Notes under the pieces: generated by a model
Database searches by the model: none
Told to the model about the DNA's origin: nothing
The model's input: only the letters and a program-made list of their open reading frames with translations
Translations under genes and position numbers: made by a program
Assembly: GCF_003952365.1 (NCBI RefSeq)
Contig: NZ_CP034443.1
Span: 2,473,001 to 2,537,000, forward strand
Origin: Mesorhizobium sp. M9A.F.Ca.ET.002.03.1.2
GTDB taxonomy: Bacteria; Pseudomonadota; Alphaproteobacteria; Rhizobiales; Rhizobiaceae
DNA length: 64,000 nt
Reading direction: 5' to 3'
Part shown: piece after piece, positions 32,708-61,777 of the stretch
Numbering within the stretch: the first letter of the stretch is position 1
Layout: every line of letters starts with the position of its first letter

Positions 32708-34006
32708 GTGGACCTCTTTTGCATTGGTATCGGTGCTGGGCCGTCTAATTTGAGCCTTGCGTGTCAGATACAGGAAGAGATTGCGCAAGGGGCACTGTTC
32801 CTGGATCGGCAGGTTGATTTCCGAGGACATCCAGGCAGCGCTTTCGATTGCGCGGAGCTCCAGGTCGGCCACTTCCAGGATCTGGTTACTCTGGTCAATC
32901 CGCGATCAGCCTACACATTCGTAAACTACCTCCACGAGAACGGGCGTCTTTACAATTTCCTCAATGCGCAATTTCACGGGGTGCTCAGAGCCGAGTTCGC
33001 TCAATATCTCAACTGGGCGTTCCAGAAGAATCCGCTTGTCCGTGGCGGCGAGGCCGTTCGCGAAATCCGCTTTGACGGCGAGTTTCGCGTGCGGACGGAC
33101 AACGCGGTCCTTGATGCGAGAAACCTCGTCATCGACATAGGCAAGCAGGCGCAAATTCCGCCTCAGTTTCATGGCTGGACTGGACCCAACCTGTTCCACT
33201 CATCAGACCTAGCGCATATCCATCCTGAGGTACACAAAAAGCATGTCTGCGTGGTTGGCGGCGGACAGTCGGGAGCCGAGCTGCTGCTGCACCTTGTCGG
33301 CCGGCCGAAAGAACGGCGGCCCGCGGCGATCACTTGGGTCTTGACGCGCGAGATGCCTTTCGACGACCACCCGTTCACAAACGAGCTGTTCACGCCTTGC
33401 TTTTCGGATCGTTTTGCGGCCATGAGCGAGGTGCATCGCCAGCTGTTCCTGCGTCGTTTCGCGCTTGCCTCCGATGGGATTTCAGAAAGCACGTTGCGCG
33501 CGGTCTATCAGGCGCTCTATCACCACGCCTTTCTCGAGCCACACCAATGCGACATCAAACTGCGGCCAAGTTGCAACGTGTCGCGCTGCATCAACGCAGG
33601 GGCGGGGCACAGGCTCACGCTGCAGCGCGGCATGGATAACATCGGAGAAGTAACCGCCGACATCGTCATCCTGGCCACGGGGTACGAGAACGCGCTGCCG
33701 GACTTCCTGGAACCGATCGCAGATCGCCTCGAGCAGATCGGCAATGAGCTCGCCACCGGCGAGGATTTTTCGGTGTACTGGGACGGACCGCGAGACAGAC
33801 GCCTTTTCGTTCAGAACGCCTGCCTTGGACAGCGCGGGCTGGCTGATCCGAACTTTGGCCTGCTGGCCTGGCGAGCGCGCCGCATCCTGGACAGCCTTCT
33901 GGGGCGCGCGCCATGCACCAATCCCGAGCATCTCGGCCTCATCAGCCGTACGTTGATCGAGCGCCGGCCCGACCTCGTAGCCGAAGAAATGGGCAGCGGG
34001 ATATAA
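32708..34006 (+). CDS. L-lysine/L-ornithine N-monooxygenase (siderophore type)
   Basis: 432 residues, FAD/NADPH-dependent amino-acid N-hydroxylase of the IucD/PvdA/SidA family, which makes the hydroxamate unit of siderophores. FAD motif GIGAGPSNLSLAC near residue 7, FHSSDL, NADPH motif CVVGGGQSGAELLLHL near residue 180, and the C-terminal ILATGYENALPDFL. It starts with GTG; GAGGAG lies 10 bases upstream. No siderophore synthetase or receptor is nearby. It may act with a partner elsewhere or on a different product. Confidence 0.9.
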   Translation: MDLFCIGIGAGPSNLSLACQIQEEIAQGALFLDRQVDFRGHPGSAFDCAELQVGHFQDLVTLVNPRSAYTFVNYLHENGRLYNFLNAQFHGVLRAEFAQYLNWAFQKNPLVRGGEAVREIRFDGEFRVRTDNAVLDARNLVIDIGKQAQIPPQFHGWTGPNLFHSSDLAHIHPEVHKKHVCVVGGGQSGAELLLHLVGRPKERRPAAITWVLTREMPFDDHPFTNELFTPCFSDRFAAMSEVHRQLFLRRFALASDGISESTLRAVYQALYHHAFLEPHQCDIKLRPSCNVSRCINAGAGHRLTLQRGMDNIGEVTADIVILATGYENALPDFLEPIADRLEQIGNELATGEDFSVYWDGPRDRRLFVQNACLGQRGLADPNFGLLAWRARRILDSLLGRAPCTNPEHLGLISRTLIERRPDLVAEEMGSGI

Positions 34007-38862: not shown

Positions 38863-38878
38863 TGTCAGGTTCACGACA
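38863..38878. promoter_or_regulatory. NifA upstream activator site of the TlpA-like gene
   Basis: TGTCAGGTTCACGACA, perfect TGT-N10-ACA, 70 bp before the -24/-12 element. Confidence 0.8.
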
Positions 38879-38947
38879 ATCGGCCGTGTTTGGGCTCGTG
38901 GAGAATTTTCAAAGCATTCCCCGCCGCTTACCGGAGCTGAGAGGGGT

Positions 38948-38963
38948 TGGCACGCCCATTGCT
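38948..38963 (+). promoter_or_regulatory. sigma-54 promoter of the TlpA-like gene
   Basis: TGGCACG-CCCA-TTGCT, a perfect consensus match. Confidence 0.88.
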
Positions 38964-39115
38964 GCTTGATGGGCGGCAACACTGTGAGAGGGCTGAATCG
39001 CATGCAAACGCGCAAGACGAGCGATGGCCTCCTGATCCGTGTGTTGCGATTCTGACAGAGAACCAACTACGCATAAAAGCCACGAAAGGTGTGGGTAGCT
39101 TTGGATAAGAACATC

Positions 39116-45840: not shown

Positions 45841-46325
45841 AGTTTCCAAGCGGGCGCATCAACACGCTCGCTCCCAAAGAAGTTAAATGACAAAGCTGGA
45901 ATTTTCGACCTCCCCCACAACAGCATCAATTTTGGCGGGCAGCTCCTGGCGCCTCACAATGTGAGCTTCAAAGGTCGTGCCAATTGAGCGGGAACAGCCG
46001 AAGGACAAATTCAGCAGGTTGCCGAGCCTGGAGAAAGTCAGCCGCGATCCAACGCGCCGCGAATACTTTCCTGCCCACATCCGGTCAATCGAATGCTCGA
46101 CTGTCGGATTGTGCGCTCCCCGACACAGTGCTGTTCGGTTCGCCTCCTGGGTACCTCGCTCCAGTCGGTTTACAACCTGAAAAAGCTCCGCTCGCAAGGT
46201 GGCACGACTCTTGATGCCACGTCTTTAGGTGGCGGAAGAGAACTCCGGCTGTCGATCCGTTCACTACGCATGTTGCGATGCTGGGCTGGAGCTGTGCACC
46301 TGAGGACGCAACTGAAGGAGAGATC
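45841..46325. other. No supportable gene
   Basis: A minus-strand frame (45883-46197) of 104 codons is open but unrecognised and lacks a ribosome site. Confidence 0.45.
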
Positions 46326-47075
46326 GTGAAACTCCCGCGGATTGAACTCGAGTTAGGTCTATTCCTCAACATGACTGATGGTATCGCTCAATCCGAACGG
46401 TTGTTCGAACTGTTGTCCGCGTTTGCGCTGAAGTTCGATTGCCCTTGGATTGCCTATGGCCCGCTCGCATCAAAACAGAGGGTTTTCAAGCCGAACCGAC
46501 AGGATTCTGTGGTGATGTGGAATTATCCTGCTGAATGGCAGGAGCGCTACTCGAGAATGGGCTATGCCAAAATAGACCCGCTCATCAAGAAAGGTCGAAA
46601 GGAGGCAGGGGCCTTTCGATGGAGCGAGGTGTATACCGATAAAAGCATAACTGAAGATGGACGCCGCGTCTTGGACGAAGCAGCAACATTCGGCTTGAGG
46701 TCAGGCGTTACCGTCCCTTTACATGGCCCTGCTGACAGCTTTAGGTTTATGAGTTTTGCTCAATCCTCGGACTGCGAATTGCTAAATAGAACGATCACCT
46801 ACCTGCAAATGGCCGCGCTACGGTTTCATCTGATGGTTACGAAGTTCGACACTACGACTGCGTCAGAACAAGTTCATAGCCTGTCTGCGAGAGAAATAGA
46901 GTGCATTGATTTGGTGTCACAAGGAAAATCGTCATGGGAAATAGGAACTATTTTAGGCAGATCACGAAATACGATAGATTTCCATTTAAAAAATGTAATG
47001 CGGAAGTTGGATGCGACCAGCAGAACGGTAGCTGTTGTAAAAGCTTTGGAACTTGGGATTATCGAACGGCAGTAG
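46326..47075 (+). CDS. LuxR-family regulator with autoinducer-binding domain
   Basis: 249 residues from GTG 46326 (GGAG 5 bases upstream). The ligand domain shows the usual pattern around MWNYPAEWQERYSRMGYAKIDPLI and FGLRSGVTVPLHG. The C-terminal helix-turn-helix is typical (LSAREIECIDLVSQGKSSWEIGTILG, TIDFHLKNVMRKL). No luxI gene is in the window, so it is an orphan or uses a signal made elsewhere. Its 3' end lies against an IS256 fragment, but the coding frame is whole. Confidence 0.88.
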   Translation: MKLPRIELELGLFLNMTDGIAQSERLFELLSAFALKFDCPWIAYGPLASKQRVFKPNRQDSVVMWNYPAEWQERYSRMGYAKIDPLIKKGRKEAGAFRWSEVYTDKSITEDGRRVLDEAATFGLRSGVTVPLHGPADSFRFMSFAQSSDCELLNRTITYLQMAALRFHLMVTKFDTTTASEQVHSLSAREIECIDLVSQGKSSWEIGTILGRSRNTIDFHLKNVMRKLDATSRTVAVVKALELGIIERQ

Positions 47076-47440: not shown

Positions 47441-47456
47441 TGTCGGGTTCAAAACA
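47441..47456. promoter_or_regulatory. NifA upstream activator site before the acdS fragment
   Basis: TGTCGGGTTCAAAACA, perfect TGT-N10-ACA, 67 bp before a perfect -24/-12 element. Confidence 0.8.
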
Positions 47457-47522
47457 GCGGAGCGTCTTGGGCCTGTCGGGCTTTTCGAAGCCCATCACGC
47501 AGTAACTGCGCGCCAGGCGCAC

Positions 47523-47538
47523 TGGCACGGCCTTTGCT
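47523..47538 (+). promoter_or_regulatory. Orphan sigma-54 promoter before the acdS fragment
   Basis: TGGCACG-GCCT-TTGCT, a full consensus match. The only thing downstream is the acdS fragment (47590) and, 380 bp away, the radical SAM gene. Confidence 0.85.
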
Positions 47539-47587
47539 GGTCGAGGTGCGGCAATATAGGGTGAGGGTTGACCCGCATGAGAACACG

Positions 47588-47710
47588 GAACTCGCTCGAT
47601 GAAAGGGGTGATCGACCTCATCCAGAAAGCTTCTTTCCGGCGGGTTCGAGGGTGCTGTGCGCGCATCTCGGCGATGGGCCAGCGATCACCGGTTGAGGCT
47701 ACATCTCCGG
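47588..47710 (+). pseudogene. acdS 3' fragment
   Basis: Matches the end of acdS (43190-43300): GGGTGATCGACCTCATCCAG against GGATGATCGACCTCGTCCAG, then GCTTCTTTCC..GGGTTCGAGGGT..GCGCATCT..GGCG, and ATCA.CGG at the end. Small shifts break the frame. The 5' four fifths of the gene are missing. Confidence 0.82.
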
Positions 47711-47921
47711 AGCGAGTGATGCCTCGAAAGATGCAATGCTGTCTCTGGTCCGACGCGCTCGAAGTTTGTGAGGAGTCGGCCCGGCAAATCGGCGAACCGG
47801 GCGGCTTAGGCTGCCAAAAGGGTAGATGGCCGCGTTGCCTCAGTAGATCAGCAGGCGGTGCCAGAAAGCCAAAGGCACACCATCGTGGCGCTTCGACGTA
47901 AGTAGATGGGAGTCGTCACCA

Positions 47922-48764
47922 GTGATTTTGCCGGAACTTCGCTTAGCAAACACAGCCGGCAGGGTTTTGGAGATAACGACGACCACGGGATGTGTCGTAG
48001 GATGTTCATATTGTCCCCAGGACAAGTTCGCGGTCCGGCAAAGAAAAGTGTCTCATGCGAGTCATCTGGGTCTTGAAGATTTCAAGCGGTGTCTAGCCCG
48101 CGTACCGGCTTCCGTCGACATTGGTTTTGCGGGATACTCCGAACCTTGGCTCAATCCGGACTGCACCGAAATGGTGGAGCACGCCTTCGCCAAAGGCCAT
48201 GGCATCAGGATTTTTACGACGCTGGTGGGAATGAACGGGGAGGACCTGCAACGATTGCAAGCCTTGCGCTTGGGCGTATTCGTGGTTCATGTTTTCGATG
48301 ATGGCACCTACATGAACAGCCGCCTGGTCGGAGACAAGTATCGCGATCTGGTTCGTCAACTCGTCGACGCGGATATCCCCTTGATCCGGTTCGTGGCTTT
48401 GGGCGAGCCCCACCCAGATATAGCCGACATTATTCCTACCGAAGCACTGATAAGAGCGCGGCCCATGAGCAGTAGGGGTGGAAGCGTCGACCCTAAGATC
48501 GTTGCACCACGCCAGCCAGTGGTCGGAGCCCTAACCTGCGTGGACGAACGACAGTATCGGAATGTTCTTCTTCCAAACAGCGACGTTACCCTGTGCTCCA
48601 TGGATTTTGAACGGCGTCACGTATTGGGCAACCTTCTATATGAGGGTTACTCCGCTCTGTTTGAAAAGCCAGTTTTTCGCGAAATCGTCGACCGCATGAA
48701 TGGAGCGGATGGTTTTCTGCTTTGCAGAATGTGTGAATTCGCCGACCCAAACGACCGGACCTGA
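47922..48764 (+). CDS. Radical SAM protein with C-terminal cysteine cluster region
   Basis: 280 residues from GTG 47922. The SAM cluster motif is C-x3-C-x2-C in TTTTGCVVGCSYCPQDKF near residue 24. IGFAGYSEPWLNPDC matches the next radical SAM motif. C-terminal cysteines (ALTCVDERQYRN, VTLCSMDFERRH, GFLLCRMCEFA) resemble a SPASM-type auxiliary cluster domain. Substrate unknown; such proteins often modify peptides or sugars. It lies between the acdS fragment and the biosynthetic cluster, and the NifA promoter at 47523 might reach it. Confidence 0.82.
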   Translation: MILPELRLANTAGRVLEITTTTGCVVGCSYCPQDKFAVRQRKVSHASHLGLEDFKRCLARVPASVDIGFAGYSEPWLNPDCTEMVEHAFAKGHGIRIFTTLVGMNGEDLQRLQALRLGVFVVHVFDDGTYMNSRLVGDKYRDLVRQLVDADIPLIRFVALGEPHPDIADIIPTEALIRARPMSSRGGSVDPKIVAPRQPVVGALTCVDERQYRNVLLPNSDVTLCSMDFERRHVLGNLLYEGYSALFEKPVFREIVDRMNGADGFLLCRMCEFADPNDRT

Positions 48765-49823: not shown

Positions 49824-51080
49824 ATGAACACCGACCCTTTCACGGCCCATGAGTCCAACGTTCGTCGCTATGGCCGGTCGTTTCCCGCGGTCTTTGCGAG
49901 GGCACTTGGGGCCACCATCTGGGACGAGTCCGGTAACGCATATATCGACTTCCTAGTTGGGTCCGGGGCGCTCAATTACGGGCACAACAATCCGGATATC
50001 ATGGCGCCGGCGATTGAATATCTCGTCGGTGAGAACATTCTTCTGTCACTTGATATGCATACGGCGGCAAAGCGTGACTTCATTGAAGGGTTCGTCGATT
50101 GGATCCTGAAACCCAGAGGCCTTTCGTACAAGATTCAGTTTCCTGGGCCGACCGGCACGAACGCCAACGAAGCGGCTCTGGCGCTGGCGCGAAAATACAC
50201 CGGCCGCTCGAGCGTCATGGCCTTTACGAATGCGTTCCACGGCATGTCGCTCGGCTCTCTAGCGGTGTCGGGCTCGGCCTCAACCAGGGAACTGGGAGGC
50301 GTTGCTCGCCACGATGTGATCCGTGTTCCCTATGACGGCTATCCGAGCCAAGCTTTCGATTCCGCCAGTTACATCGACTGCGTTTTGAGCGACCCGGGGA
50401 GCGGAATAGAAAAGCCGGCCGCAATCATTCTGGAGACCATCCAGGCAGAAGGCGGCATGAACGCCGCATCCGCAGCTTGGCTCACGGAAATTCAGCGCAT
50501 TTGCCGTACTCACGGCATTGTTTTTATCGTCGACGATATTCAGGCGGGTGCGGGCCGAACTGGCGATTTCTTTTCATTCGAGTCCGCAAAAATCGAACCG
50601 GACATTGTGTGTCTTTCCAAGTCCCTAAGCGGTTCAGGTAGCCCGCTTTCCATCGTTCTGATTCGACCCGACTTGGACATATGGAAGCCCGGAGAACATA
50701 GCGGGACTTTCAGAGGCAACAATTTCGCCTTCGTGACGGCAGGAGCCATGTGCAAGATGTGGTCGGATAGGAAATTTACTGCAGGTGTCGAGCGGACAGC
50801 CGTCAGGCTGCAAACGCACCTCGATCGCCTGGTTGCGAAATTTCCCAGATACATCCAACAAAAGCGCGGGCGCGGCCTGATGGCCGGCCTGAAATGCCGT
50901 TCACCGGCACTTGTCGGCCGCGTGCACGATGTCGCATTCGAAAATGGCCTTCTTATCGAATCCTCGGGGCCAAATCGCGACGTTATCAAAGTCCTCCCGC
51001 CGATAACCATCACCGATGCCGAACTCGATCGTGGCATCACCATCCTTGATCACGCACTACAGGAGCAAGACAATGCCTAA
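49824..51080 (+). CDS. Diaminobutyrate--2-oxoglutarate aminotransferase (EctB-like)
   Basis: 418 residues, class III PLP aminotransferase. PLP lysine in CLSKSLSGSG; EctB-typical LDIWKPGEHSGTFRGNNFAFVTA, FPGPTGTNANEAALALARKYTGR, and IVDDIQAGAGRTGDFFSFE. It should convert aspartate semialdehyde to L-2,4-diaminobutyrate, the first step of ectoine and of several peptide natural products. No ectA or ectC is here, so ectoine is not the likely product. ATG 49824 follows GAGGACTC. The end overlaps the next gene by 8 bp. Confidence 0.9.
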   Translation: MNTDPFTAHESNVRRYGRSFPAVFARALGATIWDESGNAYIDFLVGSGALNYGHNNPDIMAPAIEYLVGENILLSLDMHTAAKRDFIEGFVDWILKPRGLSYKIQFPGPTGTNANEAALALARKYTGRSSVMAFTNAFHGMSLGSLAVSGSASTRELGGVARHDVIRVPYDGYPSQAFDSASYIDCVLSDPGSGIEKPAAIILETIQAEGGMNAASAAWLTEIQRICRTHGIVFIVDDIQAGAGRTGDFFSFESAKIEPDIVCLSKSLSGSGSPLSIVLIRPDLDIWKPGEHSGTFRGNNFAFVTAGAMCKMWSDRKFTAGVERTAVRLQTHLDRLVAKFPRYIQQKRGRGLMAGLKCRSPALVGRVHDVAFENGLLIESSGPNRDVIKVLPPITITDAELDRGITILDHALQEQDNA

Positions 51081-51912
51081 GCAGATAACTCAAGTGCCAG
51101 CCATCTCCCCGGTTTCGATCAAAGAACGGACCGGGTCGATCAACACGGGGGAGATCATCTCGGTCCTGAAAGGTGAGCTCACCGCTCTGCACGTCAAGCA
51201 AGCTTTCAGCACCGAAGTAGCCGAGGAGATCACCACGAACTTTATTGGAAGCTCCGGTCTCAGAGAGCGTAGAGATGGTGTGCCCGGACAATATGTCGGC
51301 GCATCTCACTACAGGAAGGATGCAGCCACCTATTTCGCAGATGCGGAAGCTGCGCGACCTTACGTCGAGGCCCTTTTTAAGAATTTGGTTGACCCGGTCC
51401 GAGCAATATTCGGCGCGTTGAAGCGAGAGCTTCACAACCAGGGTATTGAATTGCGGCTCGCCCGTTCGGAACGCGGTCAGGCCAACGTCTGTCGCGCTCT
51501 CAGTTGGTCAGGCAGTGGCACGTTTTCCTTGGATCCCCACGACGACGTCGCTCAAGTCTTACGTGCTGGCGATGATTACGAGCTTTCTGCGGTGGCGCAC
51601 AATACGGTCGCAGCGCTCAACCTCTATCCCAGCATGTCCGAGCACGGGGGCAATCTGAGGCTCTGGAGCCATAAGCCGACAGTTGCGGACCGAAAGTCGC
51701 AGGGTGTGGAGACCACTGGATATCCCTATTCGGCAGCCTATCTTGAGGCCGTCCCGTGCCGCGAGTTCCAGCTCAAGGCCGGGGATATCGCCCTAATCGA
51801 TGGCGGCTTCGTTCACGGGGTTACCGGTCAATCAGGCGACGGAAAGCGTCGCCTGGTGCTGAATTGCTTTTTCGGGTTTGCGCGGCCGGATCTTGTTCTC
51901 TGGTGGACCTGA
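51073..51912 (+). CDS. 2-oxoglutarate/Fe(II)-dependent oxygenase
   Basis: 279 residues. The iron triad appears as H-x-D in LDPHDDVAQV near residue 157 and the distal histidine in DGGFVHGVTG near residue 256; the 2OG-binding arginine is likely in DGKRRLVLNCFF. It probably hydroxylates an amino acid or a small intermediate of the cluster, for example diaminobutyrate; this is inference. Translation is coupled to the aminotransferase by overlap. A strong hairpin follows 80 bp downstream. Confidence 0.82.
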   Translation: MPKQITQVPAISPVSIKERTGSINTGEIISVLKGELTALHVKQAFSTEVAEEITTNFIGSSGLRERRDGVPGQYVGASHYRKDAATYFADAEAARPYVEALFKNLVDPVRAIFGALKRELHNQGIELRLARSERGQANVCRALSWSGSGTFSLDPHDDVAQVLRAGDDYELSAVAHNTVAALNLYPSMSEHGGNLRLWSHKPTVADRKSQGVETTGYPYSAAYLEAVPCREFQLKAGDIALIDGGFVHGVTGQSGDGKRRLVLNCFFGFARPDLVLWWT

Positions 51913-51993
51913 TAGGCCGTGGATAGCGGCGACTGTTTTGTGCCGATAGTGAAGGCGTCACCTCCGTCATAGCGGGGAACCTTCAATGACAGA

Positions 51994-52027
51994 CCCCTCC
52001 GGACGTTTTTCCATTCTTCCGGAGGGG
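51994..52027 (+). terminator. Strong stem-loop after the oxygenase gene
   Basis: CCCCTCCGG and CCGGAGGGG form a perfect 9-bp stem around a T-rich 16-base loop. No T-run follows. It may partly separate the first two genes from the last three. Confidence 0.5.
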
Positions 52028-52192
52028 GCGAACCTGACTTGTTGAGTTCAGTAAAATGGCTTGGCAGTGACTTTTGCGTCCGCCCAGCCCCGTGTTTGCC
52101 GGAGCGGCGGACTGTGGCGCCTGCTCAGGCAGCCAGCGCCCTCAGGTTCTCGTAGTGGCTGATCAACTCAATGTACCTGACGCGGAAGTGAT

Positions 52193-53242
52193 ATGGCGAT
52201 CCAAAATTCTACCCATCCTATCGGCTCCGGCGGGGCGAGCATGTCGACTAGAGAACTTCTCGAGGCGGCCGCCGATGAAGTTTGGAGGCCGTACCTGTAT
52301 CATCAGACCTTTGATGGCGTAGATGCGGCCCAGAATATCGCCGACGACGGACAACAGCCACGGGTTTATTCTAGCGACGCGCTTTGTTGCGGCACATTCG
52401 GCGAGTTGCTCCAAGGACAGTTGCCGGTCGGTTCCGTTCCCGGGGACCCTCACTTCTTGATCACAATGCCTATCGCGCTCTTTGCGCGAGCTCACTTCAT
52501 GCCGATGGCAGGCACACAATCCGTAAGCGTTTATCCGTCACATAAAATCAAAGCGAAACGGCTGGCTGAGAATCTCGTGATTGCGCTCGGCGCCTCAGGA
52601 GGAATCCTCCTTTTGGAATCTGAGCTCCCTGAAGGCAAAGGACTCGCGAGTTCGTCGGCCGATCTTGTTGCGACTGCACGGTCAATCGCCTGCTGCTTTA
52701 AGCGTAGAATCCGGACACTGTTGATCGAAAAGCTAATGGCGGACATCGAGCCATCCGACGGGGTGATGTACCCGGGTGTGGTTGCATACCAACAGCGAGC
52801 ATGTAACCTTCTCTCGTTCCTTGGCCAAATGCCGCCGCTTGCGATCGTTGGTATCGATGAAGGAGGGACGATCAAAACCGTCGATTATGATCAACGGCGA
52901 GGTGAAATCTCCGCCAGTCGAAGAGCAGAATATCAAGGACTCCTGGACCGCGCACGGATAGCAATTCCGCGGGGTGACGCGGCGACGATAGGCAAAATAG
53001 CCACTGCCAGCGCTCTCCTGCATCAGGAGCGGACTCCAAAGAAGCATCTGAACTCGATGTTGAAAGCATCGCAGGCCACCGACGCTCTCGGGGTGATAGT
53101 CGCGCACAGCGGCACCATGATTGGAATCCTGCTTGATCGAACCGCGGATGACTTTACACGAAAGATTCAGTCCGTGCTCGCACATGTGTCGCGATTCGAC
53201 AACTCGCCAAGAATTTACCGGACCATGACTGGCTGCCGATGA
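52193..53242 (+). CDS. GHMP-family kinase (PduX/threonine-kinase-like)
   Basis: 349 residues. The ATP loop is LPEGKGLASSSADLVATAR near residue 145, and CGTFGELLQGQL near residue 65 is typical of the PduX-like branch that phosphorylates L-threonine or related hydroxyamino acids. ATG 52193 has GGAAG just upstream; ATG 52241 (MSTRELL) is an alternative. It is followed 10 bp later by the PLP enzyme, which could use the phosphoester as leaving group. Confidence 0.83.
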   Translation: MAIQNSTHPIGSGGASMSTRELLEAAADEVWRPYLYHQTFDGVDAAQNIADDGQQPRVYSSDALCCGTFGELLQGQLPVGSVPGDPHFLITMPIALFARAHFMPMAGTQSVSVYPSHKIKAKRLAENLVIALGASGGILLLESELPEGKGLASSSADLVATARSIACCFKRRIRTLLIEKLMADIEPSDGVMYPGVVAYQQRACNLLSFLGQMPPLAIVGIDEGGTIKTVDYDQRRGEISASRRAEYQGLLDRARIAIPRGDAATIGKIATASALLHQERTPKKHLNSMLKASQATDALGVIVAHSGTMIGILLDRTADDFTRKIQSVLAHVSRFDNSPRIYRTMTGCR

Positions 53243-53252
53243 GGTAAGAAAT

Positions 53253-54311
53253 ATGGACGCTGCTCGCAAACACCTTCTATTCTCCGGATATTCTGATGCG
53301 TATGCTCTTCCTAGAATTATTAGGTGCGGGACAAACCTTTATCTCGCGCAGTTCGCTTTCATGAAGCTTCTCCCTGCGAAGTACATTATCGAGAAAGCGG
53401 TGACTCGAGGGACGTTGACGCACGGCATGAAAGTTCTCGAGACCTCAAGCGGAACCTTCGCACTGGGGCTGGCCGTCATTTGCCGAGAACGTGGATTCCA
53501 GCTTGAGATCTTCACGGACCCGGTGATGGACAAAGGTCTCGAAAACAGGTTGAGCTCTCTAGGAGCCGAAGTCGTCATAGTAACTGAAAAGGCCCAGGAT
53601 GGTGGTTACCAACGAAGCCGGCTGGACGCGTTACACGCTAAGATGAGACAGTTGGGCCATTCCTGTTTCTGGCCCCGTCAGTACGAAACACCGGACAACC
53701 CCGCAGCCTACAAGCTTTTTGCTGATCAACTATCGGGGATGCTGGACGCCGACATAACTTTGGTCGGTTCTGTGGGGTCTGGTGGCTCTACTTGCGGAAC
53801 GATAGAGCGCCTTCGCCAAAAAGCCCCGGAGGCGCGCCTGATCGGAGTAGATACCTTCAATAGCGTCATTTTTGGCCAACCGGATGGCGACCGGAAACTG
53901 CGGGGCCTGGGGAACAGTCTTGTCCCCAAGAATGTGAAGCATGAACTGTATGACGACGTGCATCTCATTTCGGCTCCGCTCGCATTTGCTGCAACGCATA
54001 CCCTCCATGAGCGGCACGCCGTTTTCGCCGGTCCGACCTCCGGGGCGAGCTACATCGTTGGGCGTTGGCACGCTCGGCAGTATCCAGGAGAAACCGTGGT
54101 CGTCATATGTGCAGATGAAGGCCACCGCTATGCCGAAGCTGTTTATGACCACGAGTGGCTCAAGCAGAATGGATGTCTGCATGAAGGTGCTCTTCTGGAC
54201 GCTCCGTCCAGTGAAGAGCATCCCTCGACCGCTCTTCCGCCATGGAACCGATATCGTTGGAATCGGAAAAGCCGGGAAGCTGTCTTAAGCCTGCTGGAGG
54301 ACGATTCTTGA
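53253..54311 (+). CDS. Cysteine-synthase-like PLP enzyme (fold type II)
   Basis: 352 residues, related to cysteine synthase, cystathionine beta-synthase and SbnA. The PLP lysine should be in [12 protein letters not shown], where relatives read K-D-R-P-A; the D-R pair is changed. The substrate loop is [12 protein letters not shown] and the phosphate loop [11 protein letters not shown]. Likely performs a beta- or gamma-replacement on an activated hydroxyamino acid, perhaps the phosphoester made by the upstream kinase (SbnA uses O-phosphoserine). A GAGGTAAG ribosome site is present; its stop overlaps the next ATG (TGATG). Confidence 0.83.
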
Positions 54312-57010
54312 TGAACCGAGGTAGCTTCCTTTTCGTGGAAAGCAACACGACGGGCACCGGCGAACTATTAATGAAACGGGCCCGAGCTCTTGGCTTCGAA
54401 CCATATCTCGTTACGCGTAATCCTGCGCGTTATCCGTTTCTGAAGGACTCGGTCGCTCACGTTGTCGAAGCTGAAACGCGTAGTCCGGACGAACTCATCG
54501 GGGTCGCCGCCAAGTTGGGAAGGCTGGCAGGAATATACTCGTCGTCGGATTATTTTGTGGAAGCAGCGTCAAGTGCTGCGACGGCCATCGGGCTACCAGC
54601 AGCCAATCCGAAGGCTATAGCTACCTGCCGGAACAAATGGAAGCAAGCGGCCGAGTTGCAGCGACAATCAATCACGATCCCTGAGACTCGACTGGCCACT
54701 TCCGTCCGAGACGTGGAGAAGATACTTGCCCAAGCCACTCTGCCGGTGGTGGTGAAGCCGGTCTCCGGTAGTGGTAGTAGTGGCGTGCGGTTGTGCGATA
54801 CAGCGGCAGCCGCAATCAAGGCGTTTGAGAGTGCAAGGGGCGCGTTACTCGATCAGGTAGGTCTGTGCAGCCCTGATGTCCTCATCCAGAAATATATAAG
54901 GGGTAAGGAATACTCCGCAGAGATAATTGCGAACGATGGAACCCTGCATTGCCTTGGAATACTTGCAAAGCACAAGGGCCCGCCTCCCTGCTTCGTCGAG
55001 GTAGGGCACGACTTCCCGGCACCGCTCCCGGAGCGCTCCCTCCAGGAACTGGCCTGTTTTGCCGTGAGTGCGGTATCAGCGCTCGGCCTGGAGTTCGGAC
55101 CGGCTCATGTAGAGTTCGTAATAGCGGAGCCAGGCCCGGTCATCATTGAGGTCAATCCCAGACTGGCTGGAGGAATGATTCCAGTCATGCTGTCGCACGC
55201 TTTGCGCACCTCAATCCTTGATATGGTCATTAATCTTTACGCGGGACAAGGGTTTACGCCTCCGCGGGCGGGCGGAAGAGCGGGAGCTATCCGTTTCCGC
55301 CTTGCTCACGAATCCGGGAAGCTCAAACGCCTGAGCTTTTCTCGAACTCCAGGGCCGACAGTGCCCGAAGCGGGGCTTCTGAAATATGGGGGGGAGGATG
55401 TTCAAATAAATGGCGATTTCAGAGACCGAGTAGCCTACGCCGTAGGCGTCGCTGATGAACTCGACGCCGCCGTTATAGCAGCTCAACAGATGATCGATTC
55501 CACGGTGATGGATATGGAAGAGGCTGCTGGCGAATCGGACAACAAGCAAGTCGCTGGGGCAAGCGAGGGCAGGTGGAACCTACATCCCGAAGCGATGAAG
55601 TTGCTCGCTCCGCCTATCGAAATCTCGCGTGACGGTCGCCTTCTGCGGCACCAGGCGACCATAGATGAAGCACATCTGGTGATGCTCGCGGATCAGGGCT
55701 TGATCAACCGGGAAGTCGCTGCCGATCTCTTGAAGCACATCTTTCACCTCCAGGACGAGGGCTTTCAGTCTTTGGAGGGACGCGATGCTCCGCGCGGCCT
55801 CTACCTTGCCTATGAGGCAGAACTTGCCGCCAGAGCTGGCCCGGAAAAGGCCGGCTGGCTGCACCTTGCAAGATCCCGCAACGACTTGAACGCGACCATC
55901 TCTCTGCTGGTCCTTCGGGAAGCTGGGTGTGCTATCTCCCAAGAAATAGGCATTGCACAAGATGCCCTGCTTCAGCGCGTGGAGGAAGCATCGAGATTTG
56001 TTGCTCCTTTGTACAGTCAGTACCAGATTGCAATCCCCGGATCGCCAGGGCACTACCTGCTCAGCGTTTTCTTCGCTCTGCGGCGCGAGCGCCAGCGGCT
56101 CCATTGCCTCCTGGAAGACATCAAGAACTGCCCTATGGGAGCTGGTGCCGGCGGAGGCACCAGCCTGCCTATCGACCCTTTGAAGACAGCAAATCTTCTG
56201 GGATTTGAATTGCCGTCATTCAACTCGCTTGATGCGGTTGCAAGCCGTGACCATCACCTACAAGGGCTTTCACTCTTCGCTAGCGTTGCAATTTTGCTCA
56301 GCCGTGTGGCCCAGGACCTGCAGCTTTGGACGACCAGGGAGTTCGCGCTCATTGACCTTCCTCATTATCTTGCTGGTGGCTCTTCCATGCTTCCCCAAAA
56401 GAAGAACCCATTTTTGCTTGAACACGTCAAGGGGTCGGCAAGCACAGCGATTGGGGCCTACGTTTCTGCGGCAACAGCCACCTGCAAATCGCCTTTCAGC
56501 AACTCGATCGAAACGAGCAACTACGGTTGCTCTCCATTAGCCCTTGCAGAAGATGCCCTTAAGAGGGCCATCACCCTCACATCACTCATTGTGAAATTCA
56601 TGTCTTTCAACGTGCGGTCAATGCGTGAAAATCTGGAAGATGGCTCACCCATGACGGCAGTCGCCGCAGAACGGATGGCGTCGCGAGGCGTTCCTTTCAG
56701 GAAGGCCCACACACTAATTGGTGAGATCGCCCAACGCCTGTCTCTGGATAGCTCGGTTGCGGAGCGCCGAAGCGAGTTGGCAAGCCACCTCACTGGCGTG
56801 TTGCCGGAGAGTCTTGAAGAATGCAGGGATGCTCTGCAGTTCGGAGGAGGACCCGGACAACGATCAACCGATGATCAGCTTTCTGTAGCAAAGAAGATGT
56901 ATGGCGAAATGCAGCTGAAATGCGCGGAAATACGGGAGCGTTGGGCGCACGCTGAGATACACCGCAAACAGAGGGTGAATGAGCTTATTGATGATCATCA
57001 GGCAACTTGA
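54311..57010 (+). CDS. ATP-grasp ligase fused to argininosuccinate-lyase-like domain
   Basis: 899 residues. Residues 1-400: ATP-grasp carboxylate-amine ligase ([56 protein letters not shown], and the metal-binding [14 protein letters not shown]). Residues 430-899: fumarase/argininosuccinate lyase fold ([19 protein letters not shown], and the signature [13 protein letters not shown] with its catalytic serine). A ligase plus a fumarate-releasing lyase recalls PurC/PurB chemistry: attach aspartate to a carboxylate, then eliminate fumarate to leave an amide or amine. That role is inference. Starts within the previous stop; last gene of the cluster. Confidence 0.88.
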
Positions 57011-57772: not shown

Positions 57773-59842
57773 TCAAATGGCGGAAAACAGCGATTCCTGG
57801 TTGTCGTCGTGGATGCGACGCGGAGTATTGCGCGCCAAATCGGCCTTGATCCGTTCGTCTTCGAGGTCGCTGGCGCGGATCTGGTAGGGCGCGCCGCGCA
57901 TGACTTGCTCGGCCGGCAAGAGGCCATCCCTGATGAACCGGCGGATTTTGACGTGCGACACGCCGAGCTTCGCGGCCGCATCCGACATGGTGAGCCACTC
58001 GCCATTCTTGTCGGAAGAGCGATAGCCGCTGATCTTGTGCACCGTGCGCAGCGATTGGACGCGACGCGCGGTCCAGGTCTTTCCCTGACCGGTCTGCATG
58101 CCCATGCGGTTGAGTGTGGCAGCGATTTCGGCATCCGACCACCGGGTTGCCATGGATCGCATGATCGCCAGAGCCTCCTCAGGCGTACGCTGGCCATGCT
58201 CTCCGGATTTGGGCTTGCGAACCCGTACCTGCGAGTGCTGGCCTCCGTGCCAGTGGATGGTCAAGATCACGTCGCGCGCATCGTCATCGACATCCGCCAC
58301 GATATCCTTGATGAGCGCGCGCAGCAGTTGCTGACGACAGCGCATGTCGACACCCGGCGCATTCCAGGAGGCCTCGAGATCCTGGGCGAGGCCCGTGAAG
58401 TCCGGAACCGCGTCGACAGGCTCCACACGCTGGACTTCGCTCAGCTGGGCCTCGCAGGTCTCCACGCGCCTGAGTGTGGCTTCCCAACTCCTCTCGAGCT
58501 GGGCCGCAATAAGCCGGTTCTCCGGGTCGCAAGCGGCATAGCGGCGCTCGGCGAGCGATGCCTCATAGCGCGCCTGCTGCAGGTCCATCTCGATCATCTG
58601 CCGCCGCTTGGCTTCGCTCTCCAGCTGCATCCGTTCAGCCTCCAACGCCGCTTCGATCGCCATCGGCGCAACCGCCTCCAGCGCTTCGCGGGTCACCGCC
58701 GCGTCGGTGCGAAAGCCGTTGAACGACATGCATCGCGCCTGTGCCATCATGAGGTTGCCGCGCTCGCAGCGATATACCGGATAACCTTGGCCGCGTCCGG
58801 CATACATGACAACCAGTCTTCGCCCGCATCGACCACAGGAGATAAGACCCGGGAGCAGCGCGCGACCGCCGCGGCCCGACTTGACGCCGCCGGCTTTGCC
58901 GTAAGCGTTGGCTGCGAGCAGTTCCTGGTTCCGTTCGTACTCGCTCCATCCGATGTAGCCTTCGTGATGGTCCTTGAGCACCACCGCCCACTCGCTAGCC
59001 GGCTTGTAATGGCCATAGCTCTTGCGAACGCGGCCATCGACGATCTCAGTGCGCTTCTCGCTTTTACCATAGACATAGGCGCCGGCGTAGAATGGGTTCT
59101 TCAGGATCGAGATCACGTTGCGGTAACGGATCGGAACCCAGTCGAAGGACACCATCTTCTTGCCGTCGGAGGGTCTGGGGAAATGCACGCCATCGTCGAT
59201 CATCGAGATCAGGACCTGGCGCGCGCTGCCGAGTTCGCGGAAGCGCGCGAATATCAGGTGAATGGTCTCCTGCAGGCGCATGTCGGGATCGAACCCGAGA
59301 CCGTAATCGCGGTGCCAGACATAGCCGAAGGGCACGGAGATGCGCAGTTCTCCGCGCTGTGCCTTGGCGCGGGCGGCCTCGTACATGCGGGCACGCAGCA
59401 CGCCGAGCTCGAATTCGCTGATGCTGCCCTTCATACCCAGCAGCAGGCGGTCGTTCGGCAATCCCGGATCGTAGACTCCGTCCAGATCGATCACGCGTGC
59501 ATCGACTTCGCCGCACAACTCGAGCAGCCGATGCCAGTCCGGCCCGTTGCGCGACAGGCGGGACGCCTCCAGGCAAAGCACGGCGCCCACATGGCCGGTG
59601 CACAGATCGTCGACCAGGCGCTCGAAACCGGGACGCTCCACAGCCCCGCTTGCGGTTCGTCCCAGATCCTCGTCGATCACCTCTACTTTGCGGAATCCCC
59701 AACGCCGCGCGACGTCGACAAGCTCATACTGCCGACGCTGGCTCTCAAGGTTGAGCTGGACCTGCGCCTGAGTGGATTGACGCACATAGACGACGGCCTT
59801 GCGCTTGAGGACGGCAGTCGGAATCAGATTACCGCTCGTCAT
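57773..59842 (-). CDS. Large serine recombinase
   Basis: 689 residues. Resolvase domain: AVVYVRQSTQAQVQLNLESQ with the catalytic serine in VRQST near residue 22, and EASRLSRNGPDWHRLLEL near residue 96. The recombinase domain follows (YGYVW-like FGYVWHRDYG, LKNPFYAGAYVYGK), then the zinc-ribbon region LISCGRCGRRLVVMYAG...YRCERG, a long coiled coil (ALEAERMQLESEAKRRQMIEMDL) and a C-terminal helix-turn-helix (TMSDAAAKLGVSHVKIRRFI). Complete frame, so possibly active. It overlaps the small upstream gene by 14 bp. Confidence 0.92.
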   Translation of the reverse strand: MTSGNLIPTAVLKRKAVVYVRQSTQAQVQLNLESQRRQYELVDVARRWGFRKVEVIDEDLGRTASGAVERPGFERLVDDLCTGHVGAVLCLEASRLSRNGPDWHRLLELCGEVDARVIDLDGVYDPGLPNDRLLLGMKGSISEFELGVLRARMYEAARAKAQRGELRISVPFGYVWHRDYGLGFDPDMRLQETIHLIFARFRELGSARQVLISMIDDGVHFPRPSDGKKMVSFDWVPIRYRNVISILKNPFYAGAYVYGKSEKRTEIVDGRVRKSYGHYKPASEWAVVLKDHHEGYIGWSEYERNQELLAANAYGKAGGVKSGRGGRALLPGLISCGRCGRRLVVMYAGRGQGYPVYRCERGNLMMAQARCMSFNGFRTDAAVTREALEAVAPMAIEAALEAERMQLESEAKRRQMIEMDLQQARYEASLAERRYAACDPENRLIAAQLERSWEATLRRVETCEAQLSEVQRVEPVDAVPDFTGLAQDLEASWNAPGVDMRCRQQLLRALIKDIVADVDDDARDVILTIHWHGGQHSQVRVRKPKSGEHGQRTPEEALAIMRSMATRWSDAEIAATLNRMGMQTGQGKTWTARRVQSLRTVHKISGYRSSDKNGEWLTMSDAAAKLGVSHVKIRRFIRDGLLPAEQVMRGAPYQIRASDLEDERIKADLARNTPRRIHDDNQESLFSAI

Positions 59843-60017
59843 CGCAGCTCTCCTCCTCCGTTGCCACGCCGGCGGCGGCCCTCAGTACGTTGGCGAGCCG
59901 GGCGATCACTATGGTCCGTTGCGTTGAACTCAGCCCGTTCAGCTTCTGCGAGTCGAGCGGCAAGCTGAGTTGGCGAACGACCTCGAGAGATCGTGTCGGG
60001 GGTGGCAGGGTTCTCAT
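59829..60017 (-). CDS. Small protein upstream of the serine recombinase
   Basis: 62 residues (RTLPPPTRSLEVVRQLSLPLDS, GLSSTQRTIVIARLANVLRAAAGVA). Similar short proteins commonly precede recombinases of this type in rhizobia; role unknown. Coupled to the recombinase by overlap. Confidence 0.6.
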   Translation of the reverse strand: MRTLPPPTRSLEVVRQLSLPLDSQKLNGLSSTQRTIVIARLANVLRAAAGVATEEESCDDER

Positions 60018-60327
60018 GTTGCGACTCCGCGATGGTGAAACCATCCGGAGAGCCTCGCCGGAAACGGCGTTCGATCAAGAGCTTGTTAAGCTCAAGCAGC
60101 GCGGCAAGCGATACGCGCGGGGGGCCCAGGTCCATCGCCGCGCAAGCCACGGGATCGATCATCCAGGCCGGAGCGGTAATGACATGACCGGGCGCGACGA
60201 CGAGGTGAATGATCCGGCCGTCGGCGCGCTCTTCGCTGTTCTCGCAGCGAAGCCGACGTCCGAAATACGGGTGCCAACGGTAATGGACCTCGACCTCCTG
60301 CCCAACATGGGCAGAATGACCCCGAGA

Positions 60328-61777
60328 TGGCGATGCCGCGCAGGGCTAGCTCGGCTGCATTGTTGGATAGGCAGATCCGCCCATCGTCGAGGAACCGGGT
60401 GAAGGATGACCAGCGGCGCAGCATGTAGTTGAAGGCCTTGGTCAGGTCGTGCCCGCGCGAGAGCTTGTCGCGCGTCTCGATCATCCAGCGCTCGAGCTCG
60501 GTGACCAGCGGCGCGCTCCGCTCCTGGCGCACGGCGTGGCGTTGGGCCGGCAACAGGCCGTTGATCGCGCGCTCGATATCGAACAAGGCATCGATGCGCT
60601 TCACGGCTTCGACCGCCAGCGGATAGACCAGGTTGGGCTTCTCGCTGCGCGCCTTCTTGCGCGCCGCCGCTTCGACATCGGCCAGCTCAAACACTTTGCG
60701 CCGGCTGTGGGCCCAGCAGCTGGCCTCCAGAACAGGCGCCGGCTGACGACCCGTCGCATAGAGATCGCCGTAACCACCAAAGGCATCGGCCTGCAGAATG
60801 CCGTTCCAGCCGGCGAGATGCGCCGCGGGCTGTTCGCCTCGGCGATCGCGGGAATAGTAGAACACTGCCGCCGGCGGATCGGCGCCGCCGAACGGCCGGT
60901 CATCGCGCACATAGGTCCATAATCGACCGGTATCGGTCTTGCCCTTGGCCAGGACCGGCACCGTCGTGTCGTCGCCGTGCAGACGTGAAGCGGCCAGCAC
61001 ATGGGCTTCGAGCCGCTTGAACAGCGGCATCAGCGCCGCGGTGCCGGCGCCGACCTGGTCGGCGAGCGTCGACAGGCTGAGCGGCACGCCTTCGCGGGCA
61101 TAGCGTTCGGCCTGGCGGTTGAGCGGCTGATGCTGGCCGAACTTCTCGAACAGGATCATCGCCAGCAGGCCGGGACCGGCCCAGCCGCGCGGGGTGGCGT
61201 GGAAGGGCGCCGGAGCCTGGCTGATCGTCTCGCAGTCGCGGCAGGTGAACTTCTCCCGCACGTGCTGGATCACCTTCCATTGCCGCGGCACCACCTCCAG
61301 CGTCGGTGATATCCTCACCCAGCTTGCGCAGCCGATGACCGCCGCAGCAATGGCAAGCGGTCGGCGCCGGCTCGACCACGATTCGCGCGGCAGATGCTCT
61401 GGAAATGGCTGGCGCGCCGGTCGTTTGCGCACATAAGGCGCCACCTCGGTGGTCCGGGCCGCGCCCTGTTCGGCGGCGATCTCGTCTTGCGTCGCGGTGC
61501 TCTCGAGTTCCTCGAAGGTGAGCTCCATCTGATCGTGCAGGCGGGCTGAGCGTTCAGAACTCTGACCATGCAGCGCCCGCTGCAGCTTGCGGATCGTCAG
61601 ATCCTGATGTGCGATCAGCGCCGCATCATCCGATGCCTTGGCCCTGGCGACCGCCAGTTCGGCCTCGACCAGCGCAGCGCGCGCGGCCTCGTCTTCGGCT
61701 CTGGCCAGCGCCGCGGTCAGCGGTGCTCTCAGCGCGCCGATATCGTCCGGAACAGCATCCTGGGCGGTGGCAACCAT
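60328..61777 (-). mobile_element. IS66 tnpC, 5' part with internal frame damage
   Basis: The N-terminal leucine-rich part and DDE core of an IS66 transposase (LTIRKLQRALHGQSSERSARL, RLHGDDTTVPVLAKGKTDTGRLWTYVRDDRPFGG, SCWAHSRRKVFELAD, NNAAELALRGIA). Between about 61313 and 61380 two opposite frameshifts replace the usual zinc motif: PTACHCCGGHRLRKLGEDI is read in another frame. After GIA the frame runs into the inserted element. Not functional. Confidence 0.85.

What the first reader, a model, noticed from the sequence alone, without database searches (positions are those of the whole stretch)
49824..57010. Unassigned amino-acid-derived biosynthetic cluster
Five adjacent genes, with overlaps or short gaps apart from one 280-bp gap, encode an EctB-like aminotransferase, a 2OG-Fe(II) oxygenase, a GHMP kinase of the threonine-kinase type, a cysteine-synthase-like PLP enzyme and an ATP-grasp/lyase fusion. 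A workable logic: make diaminobutyrate, hydroxylate it or a partner amino acid, phosphorylate the hydroxyl, replace the phosphate by a nucleophile, then ligate and release fumarate. I know no described pathway with this exact set. The product could be a signal, toxin, metallophore or opine-like nodule compound.
Basis: partly seen in the sequence, partly recalled or inferred. Interest (0 to 1): 0.85.

Follow-up and report, generated by a model that had tools for sequence, protein, structure and literature searches.

The report
Two joined diamino-acid gene modules
The five neighbouring genes in this nitrogen-fixing nodule bacterium are two separate, mobile sets that happen to sit side by side: one probably makes and hydroxylates the amino acid 2,4-diaminobutyrate in nodules, the other probably turns threonine into a different diamino acid and attaches it to something; neither product is known.

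Summary
Module A (ectB + 2OG-Fe(II) oxygenase, 49824-51912) is in 77 of 146 Mesorhizobium genomes, 76 of them nifH+. Module B (PduX-type kinase, SbnA-like PLP enzyme, ATP-grasp/lyase fusion, 52193-57010) is in 21 of 146. They are adjacent in three, the window's included. Homology to other A loci ends at the oxygenase stop in 40 of 45; homology to B loci never starts before 52148: the 280-bp gap is the seam. By synteny, A's ectB is msi260 of M. loti R7A, published as NifA2-dependent in nodules and dispensable for fixation; Rhizobium jaguaris fuses EctB to the oxygenase. B resembles kinase/PLP/ATP-grasp/ArgH-like cassettes seen beside NRPS genes in Streptomyces (recalled: 2,3-diaminobutyrate supply). 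Its lyase has Ser-Gln for the Thr-His of argininosuccinate lyase in 23 of 23 distinct proteins; the Gln aligns with Gln159 of EDDS lyase, which joins amines to fumarate. Likely: A makes hydroxylated 2,4-diaminobutyrate; B makes a threonine-derived diamino acid or aspartate adduct and ligates it. No product was measured.

The parts
49824..51080 (+). Module A: EctB, L-2,4-diaminobutyrate:2-oxoglutarate transaminase
   Evidence: TIGR02407 625.6 bits, over cut-off; three solved diaminobutyrate transaminases at E 9e-128 to 1e-122
51073..51912 (+). Module A: 2OG-Fe(II) oxygenase of the WelO5/HilA type with HxD...H...R; fused to EctB in R. jaguaris
   Evidence: PF22814 42.8 bits; HilA model E 2.8e-24, far below its cut-off; HDD and DGGF(V/I)HG in 33 of 33 distinct proteins, the window's included; fused ORF L050 10744-12834
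51913..52192 (.). Seam between the modules. The hairpin at 51994-52027 lies within the A-type homology of L063 (to 52033), a locus without B; B-type homology begins at 52148
   Evidence: -21.3 kcal/mol, z -2.44
52193..53242 (+). Module B: GHMP kinase of the PduX (L-threonine kinase) type
   Evidence: Pfam GHMP N and C; family profile against the kinase of a pdu operon E 4.9e-24 over 250 columns; PEGKGLASSSAD in 21 of 23 distinct proteins
53253..54311 (+). Module B: SbnA-like PLP enzyme (beta-replacement), Lys of FMKLLPAK
   Evidence: TIGR03945 E 1e-62; SbnA best solved relative E 7e-54 by profile, MK aligned with MK of SbnA; motif in 22 of 22 distinct proteins
54308..57010 (+). Module B: ATP-grasp amino-acid-ligase domain (about residues 1-400) fused to an argininosuccinate-lyase-like domain (about 420-897) with Ser-Gln in place of Thr-His
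   Evidence: PRK02186 1178.6 bits
49741..49758 (+). lux-box-like palindrome upstream of ectB; TGT-N10-ACA form in 9 of 32 distinct upstream stretches
46278..47075 (+). LuxR-type regulator; a relative lies beside module A in 14 of 25 A loci
   Evidence: Autoind_bind + GerE

Best explanation
Two independent modules lie side by side. Shown: the two conserved units, their different distribution, the seam, the enzyme families, selection, the EctB-oxygenase fusion, the lyase motif. Inferred: the chemistry. Module A: EctB transaminates aspartate semialdehyde to L-2,4-diaminobutyrate and the oxygenase hydroxylates that free amino acid (most likely at carbon 3), in nodules, under NifA-dependent control. 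Module B: the kinase phosphorylates L-threonine; the SbnA-like enzyme swaps the phosphate for the amino group of L-aspartate, giving N-(1-amino-1-carboxypropan-2-yl)aspartate (a methylated 'toxin A'); the lyase domain, acting like EDDS lyase, splits off fumarate to leave 2,3-diaminobutyrate; the ATP-grasp domain ligates it to another amino acid. I put the two-module claim at about 0.95 and each chemical scheme at about 0.5; the figure below is for the whole.
For: Two modules: oxygenase in 77 of 146 genus genomes, fusion in 21, both in 12, adjacent in 3; A homology ends at 51908-51913 in 40 of 45 A loci, at 51972-52033 in 3, and runs through only in G469 and G474; B homology starts at or after 52148 in 28 of 28 B loci outside that lineage (in both sets some loci are from one genome); none of the 5 complete A plasmids is among the 13 plasmid records with B relatives at 60% identity or more. 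A: nifH in 76 of 77 A+ against 24 of 69 A-; M. loti msi260::lacZ in nodules 1339 units, 5.1 in the nifA2 mutant, mutant fully effective (PMC3538637 passages), with iron-sulfur assembly genes next to ectB in Mesorhizobium sp. 131-3-5 and, read by eye, in G415, as iscN/iscU are near msi260 in R7A; EctB-oxygenase fusion; a distant pair (61%/45%) followed by a methyltransferase and a LysE-type exporter in G044. B: kinase is PduX-like; SbnA nearest solved PLP relative; the same activities as separate genes in 2 Streptomyces NRPS loci, Azospirillum and Sulfuriferula; nifH in 20 of 21 B+; the lyase Gln aligns with Q159 of EDDS lyase, and EDDS lyase adds 2,3-diaminopropionate to fumarate (PMC10792612 passages).
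Against: No substrate is shown for any of the enzymes. An oxygenase fragment 3.3 kb from module B in S. americanum hints that the two met more than once. The PLP enzyme is below the SbnA equivalog cut-off and its nucleophile is unknown; SbnA itself uses glutamate (recalled). The role of the ATP-grasp domain is a guess, and G309 has a kinase-PLP pair with no ATP-grasp or lyase match in the 19.5 kb fetched. Stand-alone cassette lyases keep Thr-His, so the rhizobial lyase may have changed substrate. The oxygenase found no solved relative by sequence at E 0.001 and by profile nothing below E 0.28. The msi260 identity rests on synteny, not on the R7A sequence. The DABA role of the NRPS cassettes is recalled; my searches found no paper on it, and the one related passage cuts both ways: a gausemycin-type cluster whose product contains 2,3-diaminobutyrate has cysteine synthase and argininosuccinate lyase genes, but they are absent from the other gausemycin producer (PMC12471526 passages).
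Confidence: 0.55

Rival explanations
1. Module B keeps the aspartate adduct: it makes a small aminopolycarboxylate chelator of the toxin A / aspergillomarasmine type, with the lyase running in the C-N bond-forming direction or editing.
For: Gln at the EDDS lyase Q159 position in 23 of 23 distinct fusions; EDDS lyase makes toxin A from 2,3-diaminopropionate and fumarate; lyase domain as constrained as the ligase domain.
Against: The related NRPS-linked cassettes suggest a free amino-acid building block; position D290 of EDDS lyase is Phe or Tyr here. I did not test B's neighbours for metal-uptake genes.
Confidence: 0.12
2. One five-enzyme pathway: hydroxylated 2,4-diaminobutyrate is phosphorylated, aminated and ligated (towards 2,3,4-triaminobutyrate).
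For: Five genes in one direction in G000 and G469, and oxygenase and fusion at the same spacing in G474; A would supply a beta-hydroxy amino acid that B could use; an oxygenase fragment lies near B in S. americanum.
Against: In the other 9 of 12 genomes with both, the units are on different contigs (6) or about 82-116 kb apart (3); no positive association; a hairpin in A's tail lies between them.
Confidence: 0.06
3. ATP-grasp plus lyase act as a PurC/PurB-like pair: aspartate is joined to a carboxylate and fumarate is removed, leaving a carboxamide.
For: The two are fused in 26 of 26 B loci and adjacent or one gene apart in the four loci; known chemistry of SAICAR synthesis (recalled).
Against: The ATP-grasp half is nearest to L-amino acid ligases, BL00235 and DdaF; it leaves the PLP enzyme without a clear nucleophile.
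Confidence: 0.12
4. Module A is a stray osmolyte gene set (ectoine or hydroxyectoine).
For: EctB is over the ectoine equivalog cut-off.
Against: No EctA match in the genome (its control rang in 7 of 14 genomes, none over the cut-off); no EctC match, but that control rang nowhere; the oxygenase matched no EctD model in the scans.
Confidence: 0.03

Closest known systems
2,3-diaminobutyrate cassettes of actinomycete NRPS clusters (friulimicin, pacidamycin type; recalled)
   Same: Kinase, cysteine-synthase-like PLP enzyme, ATP-grasp and ArgH-like genes in one row; seen beside NRPS genes in two Streptomyces plasmids
   Different: Rhizobial form has ATP-grasp and lyase fused, no NRPS in the annotated flanks, and Ser-Gln instead of Thr-His
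SbnA/SbnB and CmnB routes to 2,3-diaminopropionate
   Same: PLP enzyme nearest to SbnA; CmnB also related
   Different: Substrate activated by a threonine-type kinase; a lyase in the row, no SbnB-like gene among the five
EDDS lyase (Chelativorans sp. BNC1)
   Same: Argininosuccinate-lyase fold, Gln at the Q159 position, same SS-x-x-PQKKN loop
   Different: The fusion scores higher against a true argininosuccinate lyase entry (2e9f 165.7 bits against 142.3 for 6g3d); D290 is Phe/Tyr; fused to ATP-grasp
M. loti R7A msi260 (PMC3538637)
   Same: Diaminobutyrate transaminase near iscN/iscU on the symbiosis island; NifA2-dependent in nodules
   Different: The passages I saw do not mention the oxygenase partner; identity by synteny only
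MetRS-paralogue/Lys-monooxygenase systems (PMC2922099)
   Same: A distant ectB-oxygenase pair sits beside a MetRS-like gene and a Lys/Orn monooxygenase in G044
   Different: No match to that MetRS-like protein in the window's genome at E 1e-10 (no positive control)

Membership tests
2,3-diaminobutyrate (DABA) cassette | PduX/GHMP-type kinase next to SbnA/CysK-like PLP enzyme | tested here: met
2,3-diaminobutyrate (DABA) cassette | ATP-grasp and ArgH-like lyase in the same row | tested here: met
   fused in rhizobia
2,3-diaminobutyrate (DABA) cassette | Product is 2,3-diaminobutyrate | not testable with these tools
   needs enzyme assay
Argininosuccinate lyase (ArgH) | Catalytic His of the Thr-His motif | tested here: not met
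   Ser-Gln in 23 of 23 distinct fusions, the window's included (22 by pattern, the 23rd printed as FSQYQ); own ArgH L111 keeps Thr-His
EDDS-lyase-like C-N lyase | Gln at the Q159 position | tested here: met
EDDS-lyase-like C-N lyase | Overall nearest relative | tested here: not met
   2e9f scores higher than 6g3d
SbnA equivalog (2,3-diaminopropionate synthesis) | Score over TIGR03945 cut-off | tested here: not met
   212 against 349.95 bits
Ectoine operon | EctA and EctC with EctB | tested here: inconclusive
   EctA: no match; control rang in 7 of 14 genomes, none over the cut-off. EctC: no match, control silent
WelO5-type halogenase | HxG/A facial triad (recalled) | tested here: not met
   HDD in 33 of 33 distinct proteins

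The most novel reading that the evidence does not exclude
Module B makes a secreted aminopolycarboxylate metal chelator of the aspergillomarasmine/toxin A kind in rhizobia, built from threonine and aspartate and extended by the ATP-grasp domain, with a lyase that has come to carry, like EDDS lyase, Gln instead of His; such compounds are known from fungi (recalled) but, as far as I recall and without a search for it, not from nodule bacteria.
Probability: 0.12. Interest if true: 0.8.

Novelty: new variant of a known kind. Interest (0 to 1): 0.52.

Why it matters
Module A is a nif-associated gene pair in 76 of 100 nifH+ Mesorhizobium genomes; its EctB, if it is msi260, gave the highest reporter value in the part of the R7A table that I saw, yet I know no product: a direct target for nodule metabolomics. 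Module B shows a diamino-acid cassette, seen here beside NRPS genes in Streptomyces, in nif+ rhizobia on plasmids and chromosomes, with a lyase that carries the EDDS-lyase Gln and is named 'argininosuccinate lyase' by its protein-family model. If right, it gives a natural case of the fumarate-diamine chemistry now used in biocatalysis.

Tried and rejected
Single pathway: rejected as a general reading by distribution and seam. Dead lyase domain: rejected, because it is as constrained as the ligase domain (median dN/dS 0.155 against 0.150 over 11 window pairs each) and the Gln has an active precedent. Halogenase: rejected by HxD. Conserved quorum-sensing box before ectB: rejected, 9 of 32 distinct upstream stretches carry the TGT-N10-ACA form. 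A NifA/sigma-54 promoter directly before ectB or the kinase: no match within one mismatch between 47537 and 59303. The window's Lys/Orn monooxygenase as the counterpart of G044's: only 27% identical; a MetRS-like partner in the own genome: no match. Structure prediction was not run: the rule allows only window and the search for related loci proteins (and a few like them), which would leave the oxygenase without an alignment.

Papers: PMC3538637, PMC8305402, PMC3557214, PMC5656905, PMC2922099, PMC12471526, PMC12363623, PMC10792612 and PMC2779060 were seen as matched passages (and start of abstract) only; the others only as search listings. Six literature searches for the diaminobutyrate/argininosuccinate-lyase chemistry found no paper that describes the cassette chemistry; the library holds open-licence papers only, and the two original papers that I looked up by DOI are not held.
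Full report
The place. The window lies in a 6.4-Mb single-contig genome. The five proteins are identical to those of Mesorhizobium sp. M00.F.Ca.ET.216.01.1.1 (L001), so the window is Mesorhizobium, in a region with nif genes and acdS. All five ORFs are present and intact. A recombinase-like ORF and an IS66-type transposase follow the last gene (57773-61777; names recalled from the translations, not scanned).

The five genes are two units. In 11 of 11 rhizobial loci first fetched from other strains (L002-L012), the unit is kinase, SbnA-like enzyme and fusion, with no EctB or oxygenase match at E 1e-8 in the flank held (flanks up to 9 kb, some under 3 kb because contigs end). In the genus search the oxygenase is found in 77 of 146 genomes (E <= 1e-20; G439's copy has two stops and is cut short) and the fusion in 21 of 146 (E <= 1e-80; the matches in G450 and G508 count one stop each). 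Twelve have both, where independence predicts about 11 (Fisher p 0.81); within nifH+ genomes the relation is slightly exclusive (A in 11 of 20 B+ against 65 of 80 B-, p 0.02; relatedness was not corrected for). Of the twelve, G000, G469 and G474 have them adjacent, with 100% identical oxygenase and fusion (all five genes in G469). In three (G420, G421, G508) they are about 82-116 kb apart on one contig; in six they are on different contigs, which in draft genomes does not by itself prove distance. One of these six, G415, has module B on a plasmid and module A on a 7.04-Mb contig; the plasmid coordinates equal those of pMLa of M. japonicum MAFF303099. Nucleotide comparison places the seam: of 45 A loci, 40 end at 51908-51913, three (L063, L082, L090) at 51972-52033, and two (L053, L054 = G474, G469) run through; all 28 B loci outside that lineage start at or after 52148 (in both sets a few genomes were fetched twice). 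A hairpin (51994-52027, z -2.44) lies in the stretch that L063 shares without having B, so it belongs to A's tail and may end its transcript. Against full independence: in Sinorhizobium americanum CFNEI 73 a fragment of the oxygenase (18% of the query) lies 3.3 kb from module B, on the other strand.

Module A. EctB is a strong member of its family. In plasmids, 5 of 5 EctB relatives at 84% identity or more sit with the oxygenase; the other 110 are below 60% (E <= 1e-100). tblastn of the oxygenase gave 9 plasmid records: those 5, 2 Streptomyces at 29-31%, and 2 fragments. In Rhizobium jaguaris the two are one 696-residue ORF without stops: a direct link between the two functions. nifH goes with it: 76 of 77 against 24 of 69. 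Published work on M. loti R7A reports msi260, a putative diaminobutyrate-2-oxoglutarate transaminase: 1339 units in nodules, 686 without nifA1, 5.1 without nifA2; the mutant is fully effective, and the authors consider direct NifA activation highly unlikely (PMC3538637 passages). msi262 and msi263 there are iscN and iscU. In Mesorhizobium sp. 131-3-5 annotated iron-sulfur assembly genes lie next to the ectB-oxygenase pair, and in G415 ORFs that I read as IscN and IscU do, so msi260 is very likely this EctB. In Paraburkholderia phymatum another nodule ectB is NifA-dependent and 2,4-diaminobutanoate falls in nifA-mutant nodules (PMC8305402 passages); I did not test whether an oxygenase accompanies it, and one search lists no Paraburkholderia record. 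A distant pair in G044 (EctB 61%, oxygenase 45%) is followed by a methyltransferase, a LysE-type exporter and a second 2OG-Fe enzyme, with a MetRS-like gene, a Lys/Orn monooxygenase and a Peripla_BP_2 protein nearby. This points to an exported or peptide-bound amino acid. The oxygenase carries HxD and a distal His in 33 of 33 distinct proteins, so hydroxylation is more likely than halogenation. That its substrate is diaminobutyrate is inferred from the overlap and the fusion.

Module B. The kinase family profile matches, nearly end to end, the kinase of a pdu operon (E 4.9e-24); the operon is recognised by its acetate/propionate kinase and aldehyde dehydrogenase, and the name PduX is recalled. 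In the phylum search the kinase profile found 6 of 398 genomes at E 1e-15: the window's, G309 and four of one other family, of which one lies in that operon and two lie beside ORFs that read as cobalamin synthesis genes (names recalled). The PLP enzyme is nearest to SbnA among solved structures (7e-54), with the MK of the cofactor-Lys motif aligned, but is below the SbnA equivalog cut-off. The same activities as separate genes, in the same order, appear in two Streptomyces plasmids beside NRPS genes and in Sulfuriferula, and with a transporter between the last two in Azospirillum. A kinase-PLP pair without the other two is in G309. Clusters for 2,3-diaminobutyrate in friulimicin and pacidamycin have such genes as far as I recall; I could not find this in the library. 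One passage touches it: a gausemycin-type cluster whose product contains 2,3-diaminobutyrate holds cysteine synthase and argininosuccinate lyase genes two ORFs apart, but the paper says that they are missing from the other producer's cluster (PMC12471526).

The lyase. In argininosuccinate lyase/delta-crystallin the motif His (H160/H162) is catalytic (PMC2779060 passages). The genome's own ArgH and all four stand-alone cassette lyases keep Thr-His. All 23 distinct rhizobial fusions, the window's included, have Ser-Gln (22 by pattern; the 23rd reads FSQYQ instead of YSQYQ). The solved entries 6g3d and 6rx8, labelled argininosuccinate lyase, have Thr-Gln there; 6G3H, listed with 6g3d under the same sequence, is EDDS lyase, and counting along the printed alignment the Gln is Q159, which lies 4-6 A from the substrate and changes amine acceptance when mutated (PMC12363623 passages). 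EDDS lyase makes toxin A from fumarate and 2,3-diaminopropionate (PMC10792612), the same kind of bond that the PLP enzyme would form here from aspartate. So the lyase is probably active on N-aminoalkyl aspartates. Its D290 position is Phe (19) or Tyr (4) in the 23 fusions, unlike both ArgH and EDDS lyase, so the substrate probably differs. The fusion scores higher against a true argininosuccinate lyase than against EDDS lyase; the Gln may be a parallel change, and no tree was built.

The ligase. The ATP-grasp half is nearest to L-amino acid ligases (BL00235, 2.7e-19); in NCBIfam, after a general family, DdaF of dapdiamide synthesis is the best named model (1.6e-19, far below its cut-off), which fits ligation of a diamino acid. 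Its partner is unknown.

Verdict. Observation confirmed; single-cluster reading not supported; two modules, both real and conserved, each a plausible route to an unusual diamino acid. Novelty: a new variant of a known kind for B; for A, a gene pair whose EctB is probably known from expression work but whose pathway, as far as the passages I saw go, is undescribed.

Noticed in passing
window 47441-48764: Radical SAM gene (47922-48764; PF04055 just below its cut-off) preceded by a NifA-type UAS (47441) and a perfect -24/-12 site, CTGGCACGGCCTTTGCT (47522-47538). The same letters are listed in R7A as 'Nr msi281, no annotated genes' (PMC3538637); the radical SAM gene may be its target. A relative is beside module A in 5 of 25 A loci.
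   Followed up: partly
G000:C1 2540485, 2554215, 2559122, 2689699: Four more ATP-grasp genes about 30% identical to the fusion's ligase half, within about 160 kb of it. One such family lies near 6 of 25 A and 10 of 26 B loci: a ligase family that recurs in rhizobial symbiosis regions.
   Followed up: partly
L137 11122-13556 (G000:C1 about 2694000-2696600): A second, different EctB (49%) overlaps an ORF that looks like an EgtD-type methyltransferase (recalled from the translation, not scanned), with an ATP-grasp gene about 3 kb away. It could be another source of 2,4-diaminobutyrate.
   Followed up: no
L018 and L019, 2507-3808: A 433-residue ORF that falls in the EctB/oxygenase similarity group follows the ectB-oxygenase pair in G209 and G309; not characterised.
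   Followed up: no
L009 2860-4335 (also L104): A broken piece in Mesorhizobium sp. SOD10 joins the front of a module-B kinase to part of a lyase, upstream of an intact module B.
   Followed up: no
window 38863-39089: NifA-type UAS and perfect -24/-12 site before a TlpA-like ORF (name recalled).
   Followed up: no
window 32708-34006: Lys/Orn N-monooxygenase in the nif region (PF13434); R7A has an L-lysine 6-monooxygenase, msi280, with a NifA-type promoter.
   Followed up: partly
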